Position numbers and translations under genes: made by a program | NCBI GenBank assembly: GCA_947476335.1 | Contig: CANJQH010000007.1 | Location: 1 to 64,000 of the forward strand | Origin: Anaerolineae bacterium | GTDB lineage: Bacteria > Chloroflexota > Anaerolineae > J036 > Brachytrichaceae | DNA: 64,000 nucleotides | Reading direction: 5' to 3' | Shown: positions 18,128 to 54,351 of the stretch, piece after piece | Layout of the letters: every line of letters starts with the position of its first letter | Position numbering within the stretch: the stretch's first letter is position 1 | Notes under the pieces: generated by a model | What the model was told of the DNA's origin: nothing | The model's input: only the letters and a program-made list of their open reading frames with translations | The model's database searches: none

Positions 18128-18322
18128 TCAGGCCTCGATTGATATTTCCCGTAACTACTCAGGCCAGCTATTTTTCCAACGCGAAACACACTATTCTCTC
18201 CCCCGAAGGGGGAGAGAATAGTGTGTTTCGCGGGAAATACTGATTTGGGCCTGAGTAGTTACTATTTCCCGCATTACACGCACCTGTTTCGCGTTGAAAA
18301 ACCGACTGACCTGAGTAGCTAC
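18128..18322. repeat. Old element A copy interrupted by a younger copy
   Basis: The outer sequence (GTCAGGCC... at 18127-18142 and GCATTACACGCACCTGTTTC... to GACCTGAGTAGCTAC at 18308-18322) is a diverged element A. The intact copy at 18151-18262 sits within it, and the host bases TATTTCCC are duplicated on either side. The old copy has lost its hairpin. Confidence 0.85.
18151..18262 (-). mobile_element. Element A, intact 112-bp copy (nested)
   Basis: It has complete terminal repeats and hairpin (CGAAACACACTATTCTC arms, CCCCC-GAA-GGGGG tip). The exact 8-bp flanks TATTTCCC lie at 18143-18150 and 18263-18270. It is inserted into an older element A copy. Confidence 0.95.
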
Positions 18323-23002: not shown

Positions 23003-23010
23003 AAAAATCG

Positions 23011-23122
23011 GTAACTGCTCAGGCCAGCCATTTTTCCAACGCCAAACACACTATTCTCTCCCCCTTCGGGGAAGAGAATAGTGTGTTTGGCGGGAAATAT
23101 TGATTTGGGCCTGAGTAGTTAC
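23011..23122 (-). mobile_element. Element A, intact 112-bp copy
   Basis: It has complete ends and a hairpin with a compensated change (CCAAACAC paired with GTGTTTGG instead of CGAAACAC/GTGTTTCG). Exact 8-bp flanks AAAAATCG lie at 23003-23010 and 23123-23130. Confidence 0.94.
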
Positions 23123-23144
23123 AAAAATCGATATAACACTTTTA

Positions 23145-25823: not shown

Positions 25824-26813
25824 ATGCCCGAACTTACCTACCGCGAAGCAGTGTGTAAAGCGCTGGCGGACGAACTGCGCAGTGATCCCGATGTGATTTT
25901 CTTCGGCGAAGACGTCGGCGAAGCCGGTGGCGTGTTCAAAGTCACCCCAGGTCTGTACGAAGAATTCGGACCCAATCGCGTCCGCGACACTCCAATCTCC
26001 GAACAGGCCATCCTCGGTTCCGCCCTCGGCGCCGCCATCACCGGACTGCGCCCCGTCGCCGAACTCATGTTCGCCGACTTCATCCCGGTGGCGATGGACC
26101 AGATCGTCAACCAGATCGCCAAGTACCGCTATATGAGCGGCGGCCGGCTCCGCACGCCACTGACCGTGCGCGCTGCACAAGGCGGCGGCGTCGGATTCGG
26201 CACACAGCACTCGCAATGCGCCGAATCCTGGCTCGCCAGCTTCCCCGGCATCAAAGTCGTCTCACCAGCCGACCCGGCAGAGGCCTATGGACTACTGCGC
26301 GGTGCCATCCGCGACGACAACCCAGTCTTCGTCCTCGAGCACAAACTGCTCTACAGCATGAAGGGCGAAGTTGCCGCCGATGCCGGTCCGATTACACTCG
26401 GCAAGGCGCGCATCGTGCGCCCCGGAAAACACGTCACTGTCGTCGCACTGCAGCTCATGCTGCAACGTGCGGTCGAAGCAGCGAACCTGCTGGCCACCGA
26501 AGGCATCGACGTCGAAGTCATCGATCTGCGCTGCGTGTCTCCGCTCGACCGCGCCACCGTGCTCACATCTCTCGAAAAAACCGGACGCATAGTGGTCGTT
26601 GAAGAGTCGCCCTCCGGTGCAGGATGGGGCGGCGACATCGCCTCGCTGGCGGCCGACGAGGGCGTCTATTTCCTCGATGCACCCGTCAAGCGCGTCAACA
26701 TGGGCATGACGCTCACACCGTACTCGCCGCCGCTCGAAGACGCCGCCGTGCCAACCACAGCGCGCATCACCGATGCAATTCGCAGCGTAATGCACGGCTA
26801 CCGCAGAAGCTGA
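25824..26813 (+). CDS. 2-oxoacid dehydrogenase E1 beta subunit
   Basis: The 329-residue protein starts MPELTYREAVCKALADEL and has FGEDVGEAGGVFKVT, DTPISEQAILGSALGAA and the C-terminal transketolase domain (VIDLRCVSPLDRATV, VVEESPSGAGWGG) typical of PdhB/AcoB. It pairs with the alpha subunit 150 bases upstream. AAGGA before the ATG at 25824 supports this start. The stop codon TGA shares its last two bases with the target duplication of the next element A copy. Confidence 0.92.
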   Translation: MPELTYREAVCKALADELRSDPDVIFFGEDVGEAGGVFKVTPGLYEEFGPNRVRDTPISEQAILGSALGAAITGLRPVAELMFADFIPVAMDQIVNQIAKYRYMSGGRLRTPLTVRAAQGGGVGFGTQHSQCAESWLASFPGIKVVSPADPAEAYGLLRGAIRDDNPVFVLEHKLLYSMKGEVAADAGPITLGKARIVRPGKHVTVVALQLMLQRAVEAANLLATEGIDVEVIDLRCVSPLDRATVLTSLEKTGRIVVVEESPSGAGWGGDIASLAADEGVYFLDAPVKRVNMGMTLTPYSPPLEDAAVPTTARITDAIRSVMHGYRRS

Positions 26814-26819
26814 CAAAAA

Positions 26820-26931
26820 GTAACTACTCAGGCCCAAATCAGTATTTCCCGCGAAACACACTATTCTCTCCCCCTTCGGAGGAGAGAATAGTGTGTTTCG
26901 CGTTGGAAAAATGGCTGGCCTGAGTAGTTAC
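26820..26931 (+). mobile_element. Element A, intact 112-bp copy
   Basis: It has complete ends and hairpin, with one mismatch at the tip (CCCCCTTCGGAGG). Flanks GACAAAAA (26812-26819) and GACAAAAG (26932-26939) match at 7 of 8 positions. The left flank begins inside the stop codon of the E1 beta gene. Confidence 0.93.
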
Positions 26932-26976
26932 GACAAAAGACACCAGACGACGGACGACAAGCAACTGACCATCGTC

Positions 26977-28565: not shown

Positions 28566-28576
28566 CTTCTGTTGAA

Positions 28577-28688
28577 GTAACTGCTCAGGCCAGCTATTTT
28601 TCCAACGCGAAACACACTATTGTCTCCCCCTTCGGGGGAGACAATAGTGTGTTTCGCGGGAAATACTGATTTGGGCCTGAGTAGTTAC
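28577..28688 (-). mobile_element. Element A, intact 112-bp copy
   Basis: It has complete ends and a hairpin carrying a compensated pair (CTATTGTCTC/GAGACAATAG). Exact flanks CTGTTGAA lie at 28569-28576 and 28689-28696. Confidence 0.95.
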
Positions 28689-28708
28689 CTGTTGAAGCAT
28701 TAGCTACA

Positions 28709-28925: not shown

Positions 28926-31157
28926 TTACCTCGCGTGCTCGAGCAGCTCCGCCACCTTCAGCAAACTCATCCACCACTGTTCCTTCGGTCGATCAAAAGT
29001 CATGTCTCCAAGGTCGTAAAAATTTTTCAGCGGCGTCATCACTACATCACCATGCTGATGGCCGATCATGACTGCATCACGACGACCATACGCAAACTGC
29101 TCACCAAAAAAACCTACTGCACGTGCCGCCAACTGCGTCGCTCGTACGCGGTCTTCCGGGCTCGGATCTCCGCCCTGCTGCATATGGCCAAGCACGGTAT
29201 TGCGCACATCGAAGTGCGCACCGCCCTCTTCTTCGAACATCGCGCACATGAACGGCGTTGTATACAGCTTGTTCGCTGCTTCGTTGCGAACCATCAACGA
29301 CAAGCGATTGCCCTTCTCGAAGCTCTCAATCATGCGCGCCAGATCGCGCTGCAGATCCGCCATGCAGATACCCTGCTCGTGCGTATAGATGTGCTCAGCA
29401 CCGGAAGCGAGTCCGGCCATCACAGCGAGATAGCCACAGTAGTGACCCATTACTTCCACCACGAATGCGCGATGCTGTGATGCAATCGCCGACTGCTTGA
29501 TCATGTCAATCACGCGCACAATGGCGTTCAATGCCGTATCCGCACCCACACTGAAATCCGATCCTGGCAGGTTGTTGTCGATGGAAACCGGTAGACAAAC
29601 GATTGGAATATCCAGTTCCGGATGCAGCACACGCGCAGCGCGCAGCGTATCTGCAGCCACATAACCACTCCAGCCGCCGATGACGATCAGGCCGTCAATC
29701 GCGTGCGCCTGCATCTGCCCTGCGCACAGCGCAATTTCATCGGCCGTCGGCAAATGCCGATTTGTGCCGAGTAGCGCTCCACCTTGCGGCCCCCAGCCAT
29801 CGACGCTGCCCCAATTAAAAGGCTCGATATTGCCCGCGGCAAGGCCGATGAATCCATTGCGCACCGCATGCACATCATGCCCATGCTCAAGCGCAAGCCG
29901 CACCACCGCCCGCACCGCCGTGTTCATCCCAGGTGCCGGCGCACCGCCGTGCATCACCGCGATACGCCGCCCACCACGTGATCCCTGGTCCGGCAGCGCA
30001 CGCGCCATCGCCTCAAATACTTCGTGCAACTCAGCGAAGTCCGCACCACGCAGCTGCATCACACGCTCAAAATTGCCCGCCGCCACAGCCTGCGGAACAG
30101 CACGAGTCTCGGCCACACAGTGCATCAGCGGCGCGCGCACTATGCGATTGTTCTGTATGCCGATCAAACATGGCTCACTCGACGGCGATGTACCCAGCAA
30201 CAACTCCACCGCTTCAACACCAAGCAGCGAACTCATCCAGCGGTCGTACGCACTCGGTGCACCACCACGCTGCACGTGGCCGAGGATCGTCACGCGCACT
30301 TCCACGTTCAGCTGCTCTTCGAGGATGTGCTGCACAGCCTCGCTCGTAATCGGCCGGCCAGCACGATCGCGCGCACCTTCGGCCACCACCACGATGCTGT
30401 CGCGACGCCCGGCCGCACGCCCGGCGCGCAGCAACGCACACATCTGATCTTCCCAGCCGTCCTGCGGCGGAATTTCTGGCAGCAGCACCCAGTCGGCCCC
30501 ACCAGCGATGGCGCCGGCCAACGCCAAATAGCCGCAGTTGCGGCCCATCACTTCGATGATGAACGTGCGCTGATGACTCGCCGCCGTGCTCGAAATCGCA
30601 TCGATGGCCTCGATGATGCGATGCAGCGCCGTGTCCGCACCAATCGTCATATCAGTGCCGCAGAAGTCGTTGTCAATCGAACCCACCAGGCCGACGATGC
30701 CAAGCTGTGGATGCGCATCCGCCAGCGCACGCGGGATGCGCCCACCCGCGACAAGTTCATCCAGCAGGCCCGGCCACTCACGGCGAAAAGTATCGGCGCC
30801 AGTCAGGCTGCCATCACCGCCGATGACGACGATGCGATCGATGCCATGCACAAGCAGATTCTGCGCCGCACTCAACCGGCCAGCTCGCTCACGAAACGCC
30901 GGGCAACGTGCAGTGCCGATGATGGTGCCGCCACGCTGCAGAATGCCGGCGGTATCACGCCACTTCATTGGCCGAATTGCGTCACCCCCATCGACCATGC
31001 CCTGATACCCTTCACGAATCGCGAACACTTTCGCGCCACGATTCAGCGCACTGCGCACCACAGCGCGCACCGCCGCATTCATTCCAGGCGCATCGCCGCC
31101 GCTCGTCAATACACCGATCGAAATTGCTTCGTGCTCACGTTCAATTGAAGAATCCAT
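28926..31157 (-). CDS. Two-domain (eukaryote-like) 6-phosphofructokinase
   Basis: This 743-residue protein has two PfkA domains in tandem, as in eukaryotic ATP-PFK; bacterial enzymes normally have one of about 320 residues. The N-terminal half keeps the catalytic set: GGDAPGMN (20-27), GGDGS (113-117), SIDND (160-164, with the base Asp) and MGRNCGYLA. The C-terminal half (from about 395) keeps the fold (GGAPAPGMN, GADTALN, MGHYCGYLA) but has GGWSG for GGDGS and SIDNN for SIDND, so it is probably a non-catalytic, regulatory half. It catalyses fructose 6-phosphate to fructose 1,6-bisphosphate in glycolysis. Whether ATP or PPi is the donor is not tested; GGDGS favours ATP. Confidence 0.92.
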   Translation of the reverse strand: MDSSIEREHEAISIGVLTSGGDAPGMNAAVRAVVRSALNRGAKVFAIREGYQGMVDGGDAIRPMKWRDTAGILQRGGTIIGTARCPAFRERAGRLSAAQNLLVHGIDRIVVIGGDGSLTGADTFRREWPGLLDELVAGGRIPRALADAHPQLGIVGLVGSIDNDFCGTDMTIGADTALHRIIEAIDAISSTAASHQRTFIIEVMGRNCGYLALAGAIAGGADWVLLPEIPPQDGWEDQMCALLRAGRAAGRRDSIVVVAEGARDRAGRPITSEAVQHILEEQLNVEVRVTILGHVQRGGAPSAYDRWMSSLLGVEAVELLLGTSPSSEPCLIGIQNNRIVRAPLMHCVAETRAVPQAVAAGNFERVMQLRGADFAELHEVFEAMARALPDQGSRGGRRIAVMHGGAPAPGMNTAVRAVVRLALEHGHDVHAVRNGFIGLAAGNIEPFNWGSVDGWGPQGGALLGTNRHLPTADEIALCAGQMQAHAIDGLIVIGGWSGYVAADTLRAARVLHPELDIPIVCLPVSIDNNLPGSDFSVGADTALNAIVRVIDMIKQSAIASQHRAFVVEVMGHYCGYLAVMAGLASGAEHIYTHEQGICMADLQRDLARMIESFEKGNRLSLMVRNEAANKLYTTPFMCAMFEEEGGAHFDVRNTVLGHMQQGGDPSPEDRVRATQLAARAVGFFGEQFAYGRRDAVMIGHQHGDVVMTPLKNFYDLGDMTFDRPKEQWWMSLLKVAELLEHAR

Positions 31158-31207: not shown

Positions 31208-31297
31208 AGTGAGTCGCCAAAAGTTCTGGCGGCAGATTCGCCTCCCCCGCTTTGCGGGGGAGGCGAATCTGCCGGACAAAACTTATGGACAGGAACT
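31208..31297 (+). mobile_element. Element B, 90-bp copy
   Basis: Imperfect inverted ends are AGTGAGTCGCCAAAAGTT and, on the complement, AGTTCCTGTCCATAAGTT. A perfect 21-bp-arm hairpin (31230-31250/31254-31274, CGGCAGATTCGCCTCCCCCGC) lies inside. The dinucleotide TA flanks both sides, as expected for Tc1/mariner-IS630-type insertion. Confidence 0.85.
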
Positions 31298-34428: not shown

Positions 34429-34431
34429 AGG

Positions 34432-34543
34432 GTAACTACTCAGGCCAGCCAGTTTTCCAACGCGAAACACGCTATTCCTTCCCCCTTCGGAGGAAGGAAT
34501 AGCGTGTTTCGCAGGAAATACTGATTTGGGCCTGAGTAGTTAC
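34432..34543 (-). mobile_element. Element A, intact 112-bp copy
   Basis: It has complete ends and a hairpin with several compensated changes (CACGCTATTCCTTCC/GGAAGGAATAGCGTG). Exact flanks GAAATAGG lie at 34424-34431 and 34544-34551. Confidence 0.95.
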
Positions 34544-34607
34544 GAAATAGGTAATTTCATCTCCCACTTGCACAATCAGCGTTCGCAGGGTTGAATAGAG
34601 CTTGCAT

Positions 34608-37610: not shown

Positions 37611-37655
37611 GGCCTGAATCGTTAACGTGACTCGGCAAGGTAGCAAGTCGCGCTG
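37611..37655. repeat. Remnants of element A end and element D ends
   Basis: GGCCTGAATCGTTAAC resembles the right terminus of element A. It runs into TTAACGTGACT and GGTAGCAAGTCGCG, which match the two ends of element D with the interior gone. Confidence 0.5.
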
Positions 37656-37745
37656 AGTTCCTGTCCATAAGTTTTGTCCGGCAGATTCGCCTCCCCCGCA
37701 AAGTGGGGGAGGCGAATCTGCCGCCAGAACTTTTGGCGACTCACT
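37656..37745 (-). mobile_element. Element B, 90-bp copy
   Basis: The copy is inverted relative to the one at 31208. Right flank is TA (37746-37747) and left flank is TG, so one side of the expected TA duplication has mutated. The 21-bp hairpin arms have one mismatch at the tip. It ends 18 bases before the creatininase-family gene. Confidence 0.85.
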
Positions 37746-37763: not shown

Positions 37764-38570
37764 ATGCAACTCGGAAACATCCCCTGGACGCAGGTCGCGG
37801 AACACACACACAAAGTCATCGTCGTGCCAATTGGTTCGTTCGAACAGCACGGCCACCACCTGCCATTACTGACCGACAGCATGATCGGCAGTGAAATCGC
37901 ACACCGCGCTGAAGCCGAACTCGGCGACGCCGCCATGTTCCTGCCCATGCTCTACATCGGCGCGTCAGACCATCACCTCGGCTTCCCCGGCACGATCAGC
38001 CTGAGCATGGAGGTATACACAAAAGCGCTGATTGATCTCGTCGAAAGTCTGATCGGCGCAGGCTTCCGCAAGATCTTCCTGCTGAACTCGCACGCCGGAA
38101 ACATCGTGCCGGCCGGCACCGCGCTGTACGAAGTGAACCTGCGCTACCACGAGGAAGTGCCCGATATGTGGCTTACCTTCGCCAGCTGGTTCGACCTGGC
38201 GCGCGAACAGGTGGCCGTGCTCGAAGGCATGGAACAGCAGAACGTGCTGCACGCCTGCGAGTGGGAAACCAGCATCATCCTGCGCTCGCACGGCGACCTC
38301 GTGCAACGCAAAAACGTGAAGACTGCGCGCACACCGTTCAAGTCGGACTTCTACAGCCCCGACCAAAGCGGCCGCTCGCGCGTCAGCGTGACGAAAACCA
38401 TTCGTCAAATGACCCCCACCGGCGCACTTGGCCGCCCTGACCTCGCCTCCGAAGAAAAAGGCGAACGCATTTTGCAGGTCGCTGTCGCCGAAGTCGTTGC
38501 CTTCGTGCGCGAATTCGACGGCTGGCAGCCGGCTAAGCCGCGCGCAGTGAACACCAAACCCGGCTTCTAA
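37764..38570 (+). CDS. Creatininase-family amidohydrolase
   Basis: This 268-residue protein shows the metal-site signature VPIGSFEQHGHHLPLLTD, then DHHLGFPGTISL and LNSHAGN, as in creatininase and related lactam/amide hydrolases such as MftE. It probably needs two divalent metals. The natural substrate is unknown; placement before rhamnose genes suggests a sugar-acid lactone or amide. A GGAG eight bases before the ATG supports the start, and it lies directly after an element B copy. Confidence 0.85.
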   Translation: MQLGNIPWTQVAEHTHKVIVVPIGSFEQHGHHLPLLTDSMIGSEIAHRAEAELGDAAMFLPMLYIGASDHHLGFPGTISLSMEVYTKALIDLVESLIGAGFRKIFLLNSHAGNIVPAGTALYEVNLRYHEEVPDMWLTFASWFDLAREQVAVLEGMEQQNVLHACEWETSIILRSHGDLVQRKNVKTARTPFKSDFYSPDQSGRSRVSVTKTIRQMTPTGALGRPDLASEEKGERILQVAVAEVVAFVREFDGWQPAKPRAVNTKPGF

Positions 38571-42858: not shown

Positions 42859-42942
42859 GAACGCGTTGTGCGCTGAACGGCGGCGGTATGACGTCAGCGT
42901 CATGACGTACATGCAGACGAGGCAAGTGTCTAACAGGCTCTA

Positions 42943-43032
42943 AGTGAGTCGCCAAAAGTTCTGGCGGCAGATTCGCCTCCCCCGCAAAGCGGGGGAGGCA
43001 AATCTGCCGGACAAAACTTATGGACAGGAACT
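42943..43032 (+). mobile_element. Element B, 90-bp copy
   Basis: It is nearly identical to the copy at 31208, with TA on both sides (42941-42942 and 43033-43034). The hairpin arms differ at one position. It lies just upstream of the AT-rich acetyltransferase gene. Confidence 0.88.
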
Positions 43033-43086
43033 TAGCATTGGCGCTATCGCTGGTTGTGCAAGACCTCTTGCGTAAATAATTGCTTT

Positions 43087-52905: not shown

Positions 52906-54182
52906 TTTCAACATTGCGCCGGCTCTTCGGCTTCGACTACGCCGACGGTCATAATCTTCCGCCACGCACACGACGCGGGCTGACTTTTTTTTACTGGGAC
53001 GCCGTCTTCGCACTGTTGTCTGACTCGTCGTCAGTCAATTACGTGAACCTGTTCCTCGTTTCGTTAAAAGCGACGAATGCACAAATCGGTTTTCTCGCAA
53101 CGATCGTACAGATCGTGAGTGCAATTGCTCCGCTTGGAGGCGGCGCAGTCGCTGAGCGCACCGGCCACTATCGGGCGAACATCCTCAAGCCATCGTTCAT
53201 CGCGCGCCTGTTCTGGTTCATGCTGGCGCTGCTGCCGTTCATGCCCCTCGGGCCGGCAGCAATAACGATTTCGATCACCATCTTCGCCGTGCGCGCGTTT
53301 TTCTTCGCATGGCTGCAAGCGCCATGGACAGCGTTCGTCGGCAAGCTCGTACCAACGGAAATTCGCGCCAGCTATCTTTCAATGCGCAATTTCGGCGGCG
53401 GCCTCGCCACCATCATCGGCACCATGCTCGCCGGCTGGATCGTCACTATCATTGGTCCACCAGGTGGCTATCAGGTCATCTTTGTCATCTCGGGCATCAT
53501 CGGCATGGCGGCACAGTGGGCGTTTTCGAACATCCCCTTCGAAGAGCCACAGCTCGCAGCGCAGCCAGCGCCGCGATTCAAGCTCCGACGCATCATCGAC
53601 AACACCATGGAAATGCTGCGGCGCTATCCAACGTTCGCACGCCTGCTCGTGTGCGACTGCGCACTCGCACTTGCCGTCGGCATCGGCGGCCCATTCATTC
53701 AGGTCTACCAGGTGCGCGTGCTCGGCTTCAGTGCGGGTATCGTCGGCCTGATGGTGTCAGGCGAAATCGCCATGAACATCATCATGCAACGCGTGTATGG
53801 CTCATACGTAATCCCACGCTTCGGCGAGCTGCGCGTGATGCGCTTCCTGCGACCGCTCACCAGCCTCGTCCCATTCGCATGGCTGTTCGCCACGACACCG
53901 GCCATGGGCATCCCGATCGTGATGCTCGCCGGAACACTCTGGTCCGGCCACGAACTTTCAAGCTTCAACACACAGCTGCACCTTACGCCGGAAGCAGGTC
54001 GTGCAAATTTCATCGCACTACACATGTTCGCCGTCTCGCTCTTCGCCGCCATCGGGCCGGCCATTGGCGGCGCACTCGTCGACACCATCGGCTTCTTCCC
54101 GCTCTTCGCTGTGTCGGCGGCACTGCGCGTCGGCGCAGGCATTCTGCTGAACGTGATGTTCAAACACAAGACGGCACACTGA
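52902..54182 (+). CDS. Major facilitator superfamily transporter
   Basis: The 426-residue protein has about 12 membrane segments. It begins MISTLRRLFGFDYAD with FFYWDAVFALLSDSSSVNYVNLFLV as the first helix and has a conserved loop SMRNFGGGLATIIGTMLAGW. No substrate motif is visible. The ATG at 52902 overlaps the stop of the truncated paralogue. The stop TGA shares two bases with the target duplication of the following element A copy. Confidence 0.83.
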   Translation: MISTLRRLFGFDYADGHNLPPRTRRGLTFFYWDAVFALLSDSSSVNYVNLFLVSLKATNAQIGFLATIVQIVSAIAPLGGGAVAERTGHYRANILKPSFIARLFWFMLALLPFMPLGPAAITISITIFAVRAFFFAWLQAPWTAFVGKLVPTEIRASYLSMRNFGGGLATIIGTMLAGWIVTIIGPPGGYQVIFVISGIIGMAAQWAFSNIPFEEPQLAAQPAPRFKLRRIIDNTMEMLRRYPTFARLLVCDCALALAVGIGGPFIQVYQVRVLGFSAGIVGLMVSGEIAMNIIMQRVYGSYVIPRFGELRVMRFLRPLTSLVPFAWLFATTPAMGIPIVMLAGTLWSGHELSSFNTQLHLTPEAGRANFIALHMFAVSLFAAIGPAIGGALVDTIGFFPLFAVSAALRVGAGILLNVMFKHKTAH

Positions 54183-54188
54183 AAAAAT

Positions 54189-54300
54189 GTAACTACTCAG
54201 GCCCAAATCAGTATTTCCCGCGAAACACACTATTCTCTCCCCCTTCGGGGGAGAGAATAGTGTGTTTCGCGTTGGAAAAATGGCTGGCCTGAGTAGTTAC
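54189..54300 (+). mobile_element. Element A, intact 112-bp copy
   Basis: It has complete ends and a perfect hairpin with the CCCCC-TTC-GGGGG tip. Exact flanks GAAAAAAT lie at 54181-54188 and 54301-54308. The left flank begins inside the MFS stop codon. Confidence 0.95.
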
Positions 54301-54351
54301 GAAAAAATTACGATCGCGCCCGCTGACGCCAAATGCACTCCACTCACGCTG

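What the first reader, a model, noticed from the sequence alone, without database searches (positions are those of the whole stretch)
42939..43036. Element B: 90-bp mariner-like miniature element
Three copies of exactly 90 bp (31208-31297, 37656-37745, 42943-43032) share imperfect inverted ends AGTGAGTCGCCAAAAGTT and AGTTCCTGTCCATAAGTT and a 21-bp-arm hairpin. TA flanks both sides in two copies and one side in the third. TA duplication is typical of IS630/Tc1-mariner elements. The high identity suggests recent movement.
Basis: partly seen in the sequence, partly recalled or inferred. Interest (0 to 1): 0.7.

Follow-up and report, generated by a model that had tools for sequence, protein, structure and literature searches.

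The report
Miniature IS630-type mobile element, ~200 copies
This is a 90-bp, protein-less jumping DNA element that has recently spread to about 200 places in one bacterial genome, almost always into the sequence CTAG, very probably using the enzyme of an IS630-type transposon; such elements are known, but this family is new and its hairpin centre is found in both orientations about equally often.

Summary
Confirmed and extended. The three window copies belong to a family with about 200 copies in the 3.42-Mb assembly (208 left-end and 205 right-end hits, 0 control hits). Of 177 full copies read, 165 are 90 bp, and about half of those are identical apart from the loop. TA flanks both sides in 170/177; the target was CTAG in 158 of those 170. 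Repeat copies in the same genome that lack the element show the uninterrupted CTAG (some 100% identical over 53-54 nt), so insertion with TA duplication is shown directly. The only detected IS630-type (DDE_3) transposase gene lies in a 1167-bp IS with the same target and related ends (13/18 on the left). An IS630 fragment in a same-family genome matches the left end 15/18. The element is a MITE of IS630/Tc1-mariner type, working like pneumococcal RUP. No IS with identical ends was found, so the mobiliser is inferred. Extra: the 3-nt loop is AAA in 90 and TTT in 82 copies, and three copies have the whole core inverted; the loops of the unrelated Element A flip too. Template switching at palindromes, known elsewhere, fits best. 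New member of a known kind.

The parts
42943..43032 (+). Element B copy named in the finding, 90 bp; loop AAA; one stem mismatch (G58A)
42940..42942 (+). CTA: left part of the target, TA = one copy of the duplication
43033..43035 (+). TAG: right part of the target, TA = second copy of the duplication
42943..42960 (+). Left end AGTGAGTCGCCAAAAGTT, related to IS630-type IS ends
43015..43032 (-). Right end AGTTCCTGTCCATAAGTT (read on the minus strand)
42965..43009 (.). Palindromic core: 21-bp arms around a 3-nt loop
31208..31297 (+). Element B copy, loop TTT, flanked CTA/TAG
37656..37745 (-). Element B copy, loop TTT in element orientation, one flank TA changed (CTG on the + strand at 37653-37655), 18 bp upstream of the ATG of ORF 37764-38570

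Best explanation
Element B is a non-autonomous miniature transposon (MITE) of the IS630/Tc1-mariner type. An IS630-family transposase, supplied in trans, binds the ends (shared pattern about AGTnnnTnnCCAnAAG), cuts the 90-bp element out and joins it to the TA of CTAG targets, which duplicates the TA. The element has no transposase gene. It recently spread to about 200 places, tolerated mainly between genes and inside other repeats. Its near-perfect palindromic core is then altered by inversion of the loop or of the whole core, most likely by polymerase template switching between the arms. Shown: copy number, ends, TA duplication, CTAG target, empty paralogous sites, presence of an IS630 element with related ends and the same target, both loop orientations. 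Inferred: mobilisation in trans by that IS or a lost relative, cut-and-paste chemistry, template switching as the cause of the inversions.
For: Copy number about 200. In 177 full copies TA/TA occurs in 170 and CTAG in 158 of those 170, while bases further out show no comparable conservation. In one search, 39 of 104 copies gave a hit across the joined flanks; most are host-repeat copies without the element, and several keep the intact CTAG (copies in L055 and L090 match an empty site in L018 at 53/53 and 54/54 nt). A few of the 39 are self-matches or weak and do not count. A single DDE_3 gene lies in a 1167-bp IS; Pfam DDE_3 at 86.5 bits plus HTH domains. The IS is flanked by CTA/TAG and its left end matches the element 13/18, chance about 3e-5 at a fixed position. 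The IS empty site is found at 95.8% over 118 bp in L009, and L040 carries the element at the same CTAG of another copy of this host repeat. An IS630 fragment in same-family genome G020 has the end AGTGAGTCACCAAAAG, 15/18; IS630 genes in G088 and G185 (54% and 49% protein identity) also have CTA|AGT.. ends nearby. TA duplication by cut-and-paste in the IS630 family and the CTAG preference of IS630 are published (PMC2170065, including its citation of Tenzen and Ohtsubo 1991).
Against: No IS with ends identical to the element was found in the assembly (92.7% complete); the in-genome IS differs at 5 of 18 end bases on the left and its right end is further from the element's right end (9/18). Transposition was not observed. 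Orthologous empty sites could not be compared because no same-genus genome is held.
Confidence: 0.93

Rival explanations
1. The repeat is kept as an RNA-level signal (terminator or mRNA-stabilising hairpin) and spreads by recombination, not transposition.
For: Very stable hairpin on either strand, z -8.6 and -10.6; mostly intergenic, median about 55 bp from the nearest ORF.
Against: Exact TA duplication at CTAG and empty sites; no orientation bias relative to genes, 59 co-oriented, 31 convergent and 23 divergent sites; about 20% of copies lie inside ORFs; no T-run after the hairpin; no Rfam match. A secondary effect on neighbouring genes at single sites is not excluded.
Confidence: 0.03
2. The element is moved by a transposase of another family that also duplicates TA, or by a host enzyme, and the resemblance of its ends to IS630 ends is coincidence.
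For: No IS with identical ends in the genome; the match to the resident IS is partial.
Against: The ends match several IS630-family ends at 13-15 of 18 positions, with the same CTA start; the resident IS630 element uses the same position of the same host repeat; CTAG is the published IS630 preference.
Confidence: 0.04
3. For the loop only: the AAA and TTT forms are two founder lineages that amplified equally, or an assembly effect of a 45-bp palindrome, and there is no recurrent inversion.
For: Several outer variants occur with one loop state only (9A, 22A, 78T, 85T, 88C, 90G); copies lie at contig ends, and a palindrome can confuse short-read assembly.
Against: Other outer variants (16A, 76G, and 3C, 4A, 80A, 89A as pairs) occur with both states; three copies have the whole core inverted; arms exchange sequence (L062, L216); the unrelated Element A has both loops within each common stem type.
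Confidence: 0.35

Closest known systems
RUP (repeat unit of pneumococcus) with IS630-Spn1
   Same: About 100 bp, high copy (107 bp, 108 copies in PMC2229807), ends like those of an IS630-family IS in the same genome, TA-containing target, often inserted in other mobile DNA.
   Different: Different sequence; here the end match to the resident IS is only partial, the target is CTAG, copy number is about 200, and the core is a 45-bp near-perfect palindrome. Functional analogy; common descent was not tested.
Correia/NEMIS elements of Neisseria
   Same: Small, high-copy MITE with terminal inverted repeats and TA at the termini (PMC2229807).
   Different: Different length; sequences were not compared here.
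IS630 and ISY100 (autonomous relatives)
   Same: TA duplication; for IS630 preference for TA in CTAG (PMC2170065 and its reference to Tenzen and Ohtsubo 1991).
   Different: They encode the transposase; element B encodes none.
Spacer inversion by template switching between short inverted repeats (yeast, PMC8604942)
   Same: Loops of 2-5 bp, including gaa/ttc, invert when arms are longer than 9 bp; arms homogenise.
   Different: Here seen across about 170 copies of one bacterial MITE near 1:1 and in a second repeat family; the mechanism was not tested here.

Membership tests
IS630/Tc1-mariner-type MITE | Short, no transposase gene, defined inverted ends | tested here: met
   90 bp in 165 of 177 copies; ends 12/18 alike
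IS630/Tc1-mariner-type MITE | Duplication of a TA target | tested here: met
   170 of 177 copies have TA on both sides; empty paralogous sites with one TA
IS630/Tc1-mariner-type MITE | Ends related to those of an IS630-family element | tested here: met
   Left end 13/18 to the in-genome IS, 15/18 to a same-family IS fragment; identical to neither
IS630/Tc1-mariner-type MITE | Autonomous partner with the same ends in the genome | tested here: inconclusive
   One open DDE_3 gene in an IS with related but not identical ends
IS630/Tc1-mariner-type MITE | Mobilisation by that transposase | not testable with these tools
   Needs a bench assay
IS630/Tc1-mariner-type MITE | Empty orthologous sites in relatives | not testable with these tools
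   No same-genus genome among the relatives held; paralogous sites used instead
REP element | Single palindrome with a tetranucleotide tag and no target duplication (own knowledge) | tested here: not met
   Two conserved ends and TA duplication
Curated RNA family (Rfam) | Covariance model match at the gathering score | tested here: not met
   No match anywhere in the window

The most novel reading that the evidence does not exclude
The palindromic repeats of this genome invert their loops, and sometimes their whole cores, often enough to reach a near 1:1 balance (element B 90:82; Element A about 29:22, within several stem types). The ~200 nearly identical copies would then be a natural record of template-switch inversion in a bacterium, or the inversion would be part of the transposition cycle itself.
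Probability: 0.45. Interest if true: 0.45.

Novelty: new member of a known kind. Interest (0 to 1): 0.33.

Why it matters
It is a clear, recent, high-copy amplification of an IS630-type MITE with directly visible empty sites, useful for studying how small parasitic elements spread and where they are tolerated. The two loop orientations and inverted cores in otherwise near-identical copies offer a natural assay for how palindromes invert in bacteria. The kind of element itself is known.

Tried and rejected
Search for an autonomous IS with identical ends: none in G000. The family was not found in the other 395 genomes of the class sample with up to 3 mismatches, in viral contigs by exact pattern or in plasmids. 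In one search, two matches in G052 were only 23-nt pieces of the hairpin and were not counted. The organism could not be named. Terminator, Rfam and REP readings were considered and rejected. A PDB sequence search of the transposase gave only a weak Sleeping Beauty hit, E 0.057, which is not used as evidence. No structure was predicted.

Full report
Observation. The three copies are at the stated coordinates and exactly 90 bp long. The base-level boundaries are right: the bases just outside are CTA and TAG in two copies; in the third (37656-37745, minus strand) one side reads CTG instead of CTA on the + strand.

Genome-wide census. The window is part of contig C7 of a 3.42-Mb, 125-contig assembly. 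The left end occurs 208 times with up to 3 mismatches and the right end 205 times, with no hit for the reversed control. I read 177 full copies with both flanks (fetched; analysed). The regions were chosen from listed hits, which favours well-preserved copies. 165 are 90 bp, 8 are 89 bp, and the other four are 88, 91 (two) and 47 bp. Of the 165, 88 match the consensus apart from the loop, which indicates recent amplification.

Target. TA is on both sides in 170 of 177 copies, and the four-base site is CTAG in 158, CTAT in 6 and others in 6. In the first 104 copies, positions beyond these show only weak biases, which insertions into other repeats may cause. When the flanks of these 104 copies were joined and compared with the other sequence read, 39 gave a hit across the junction. 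Most are copies of other repeats without the element. In the best cases the empty site is identical over 53-54 nt and carries one CTAG (copies in L055 and L090 against L018). A few of the 39 are matches of the element to itself or weak alignments and are not counted as evidence. Many insertions are in the other repeat of the window, Element A, at GGCTAGCC.

Partner. One DDE_3 (IS630-type) transposase gene was found in the genome. It lies in a 1167-bp IS with an open 367-codon frame. Pfam gives DDE_3 at 86.5 bits and several helix-turn-helix domains. The IS is flanked by CTA and TAG. Its empty site exists in another copy of the same host repeat (95.8% over 118 bp in L009), and L040 carries element B at the same CTAG of a further copy. 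The IS left end matches the element's left end at 13 of 18 positions. A fragmentary IS630 in a same-family genome, G020, matches at 15 of 18. More distant IS630 genes (49-54% protein identity) have ends of a similar pattern. No IS with the element's exact ends was found; the partner may be this IS, a lost element or one in the missing part of the assembly.

Mechanism. The best-supported reading is cut-and-paste transposition in trans by an IS630-family transposase, a chemistry shown for ISY100 (PMC2170065). Binding and excision of these particular ends are inferred.

Context. In a crude ORF model, 115 of 149 testable copies are intergenic, against 149 of 745 random positions in the same stretches. 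There is no orientation bias: 59 sites between co-oriented genes, 31 convergent, 23 divergent. This fits tolerance of insertions between genes, not a terminator function.

Internal inversions. The 3-nt loop is AAA in 90 and TTT in 82 copies; these are reverse complements, as if the loop had been inverted. Whole-genome pattern counts are 98 and 91, with two symmetric places counted in both. Three copies have the core inverted between unchanged outer ends, others mix left- and right-arm sequence (L062, L216), and there are 31- and 47-bp derivatives without the hairpin, still next to CTA. Element A, unrelated in sequence, has its loop as GAA and TTC within each common stem type, and in 49 of 61 copies its outer stem is perfectly complementary despite sequence differences. 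Template switching between inverted-repeat arms is known to invert spacers and homogenise arms (PMC8604942), and fits. Two equal founders or an assembly effect are not excluded.

Distribution. The element was seen only in this genome among 396 of its class. No exact match is in viral contigs and none in plasmids. The scan of named genomes was uninformative.

Verdict. Ordinary in kind, clear in evidence: a new, very recently amplified IS630-type MITE, closest in behaviour to RUP of pneumococcus (PMC2229807). Membership of the IS630-type MITE class rests on tested features; its exact mobiliser is inferred.

Noticed in passing
window 18150-18276, 23010-23136, 26810-26938, 28576-28702, 34431-34557, 54179-54307 and others: Element A, an older, diverged ~126-bp palindromic repeat with ends GTAACTACTCAGGCC; loops in both orientations (GAA/TTC), stems kept complementary in most copies; a frequent target of element B.
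   Followed up: partly
L120 near 1503; L072 near 2973 and 1050: Minimal 31-bp and 47-bp derivatives that lack the hairpin but keep the CTA flank; one 31-bp form is made of two left ends. Could be deletion products or the smallest mobile forms.
   Followed up: no
L039 1370-2536 (G000:C3): Single IS630-family element, 1167 bp with an open 367-codon frame, inserted at a CTAG of a dispersed repeat.
   Followed up: yes
L049 about 1640-1740; L009; L039: A further dispersed repeat containing AGTGCGTCCAGGCAAAACTTGCGGGTCCCCACT, whose ends look like short inverted ends; it may be another miniature element.
   Followed up: no
window 28926-31157 (-): 743-aa 6-phosphofructokinase scoring 987 bits to the eukaryotic-type model TIGR02478; unusual for a bacterium as far as I know.
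   Followed up: no
window 37764-38570 (+): Creatininase/MftE-like ORF, below the NCBIfam cut-offs, with an element B copy 18 bp upstream of its ATG; L-rhamnose isomerase and rhamnulokinase genes follow.
   Followed up: no
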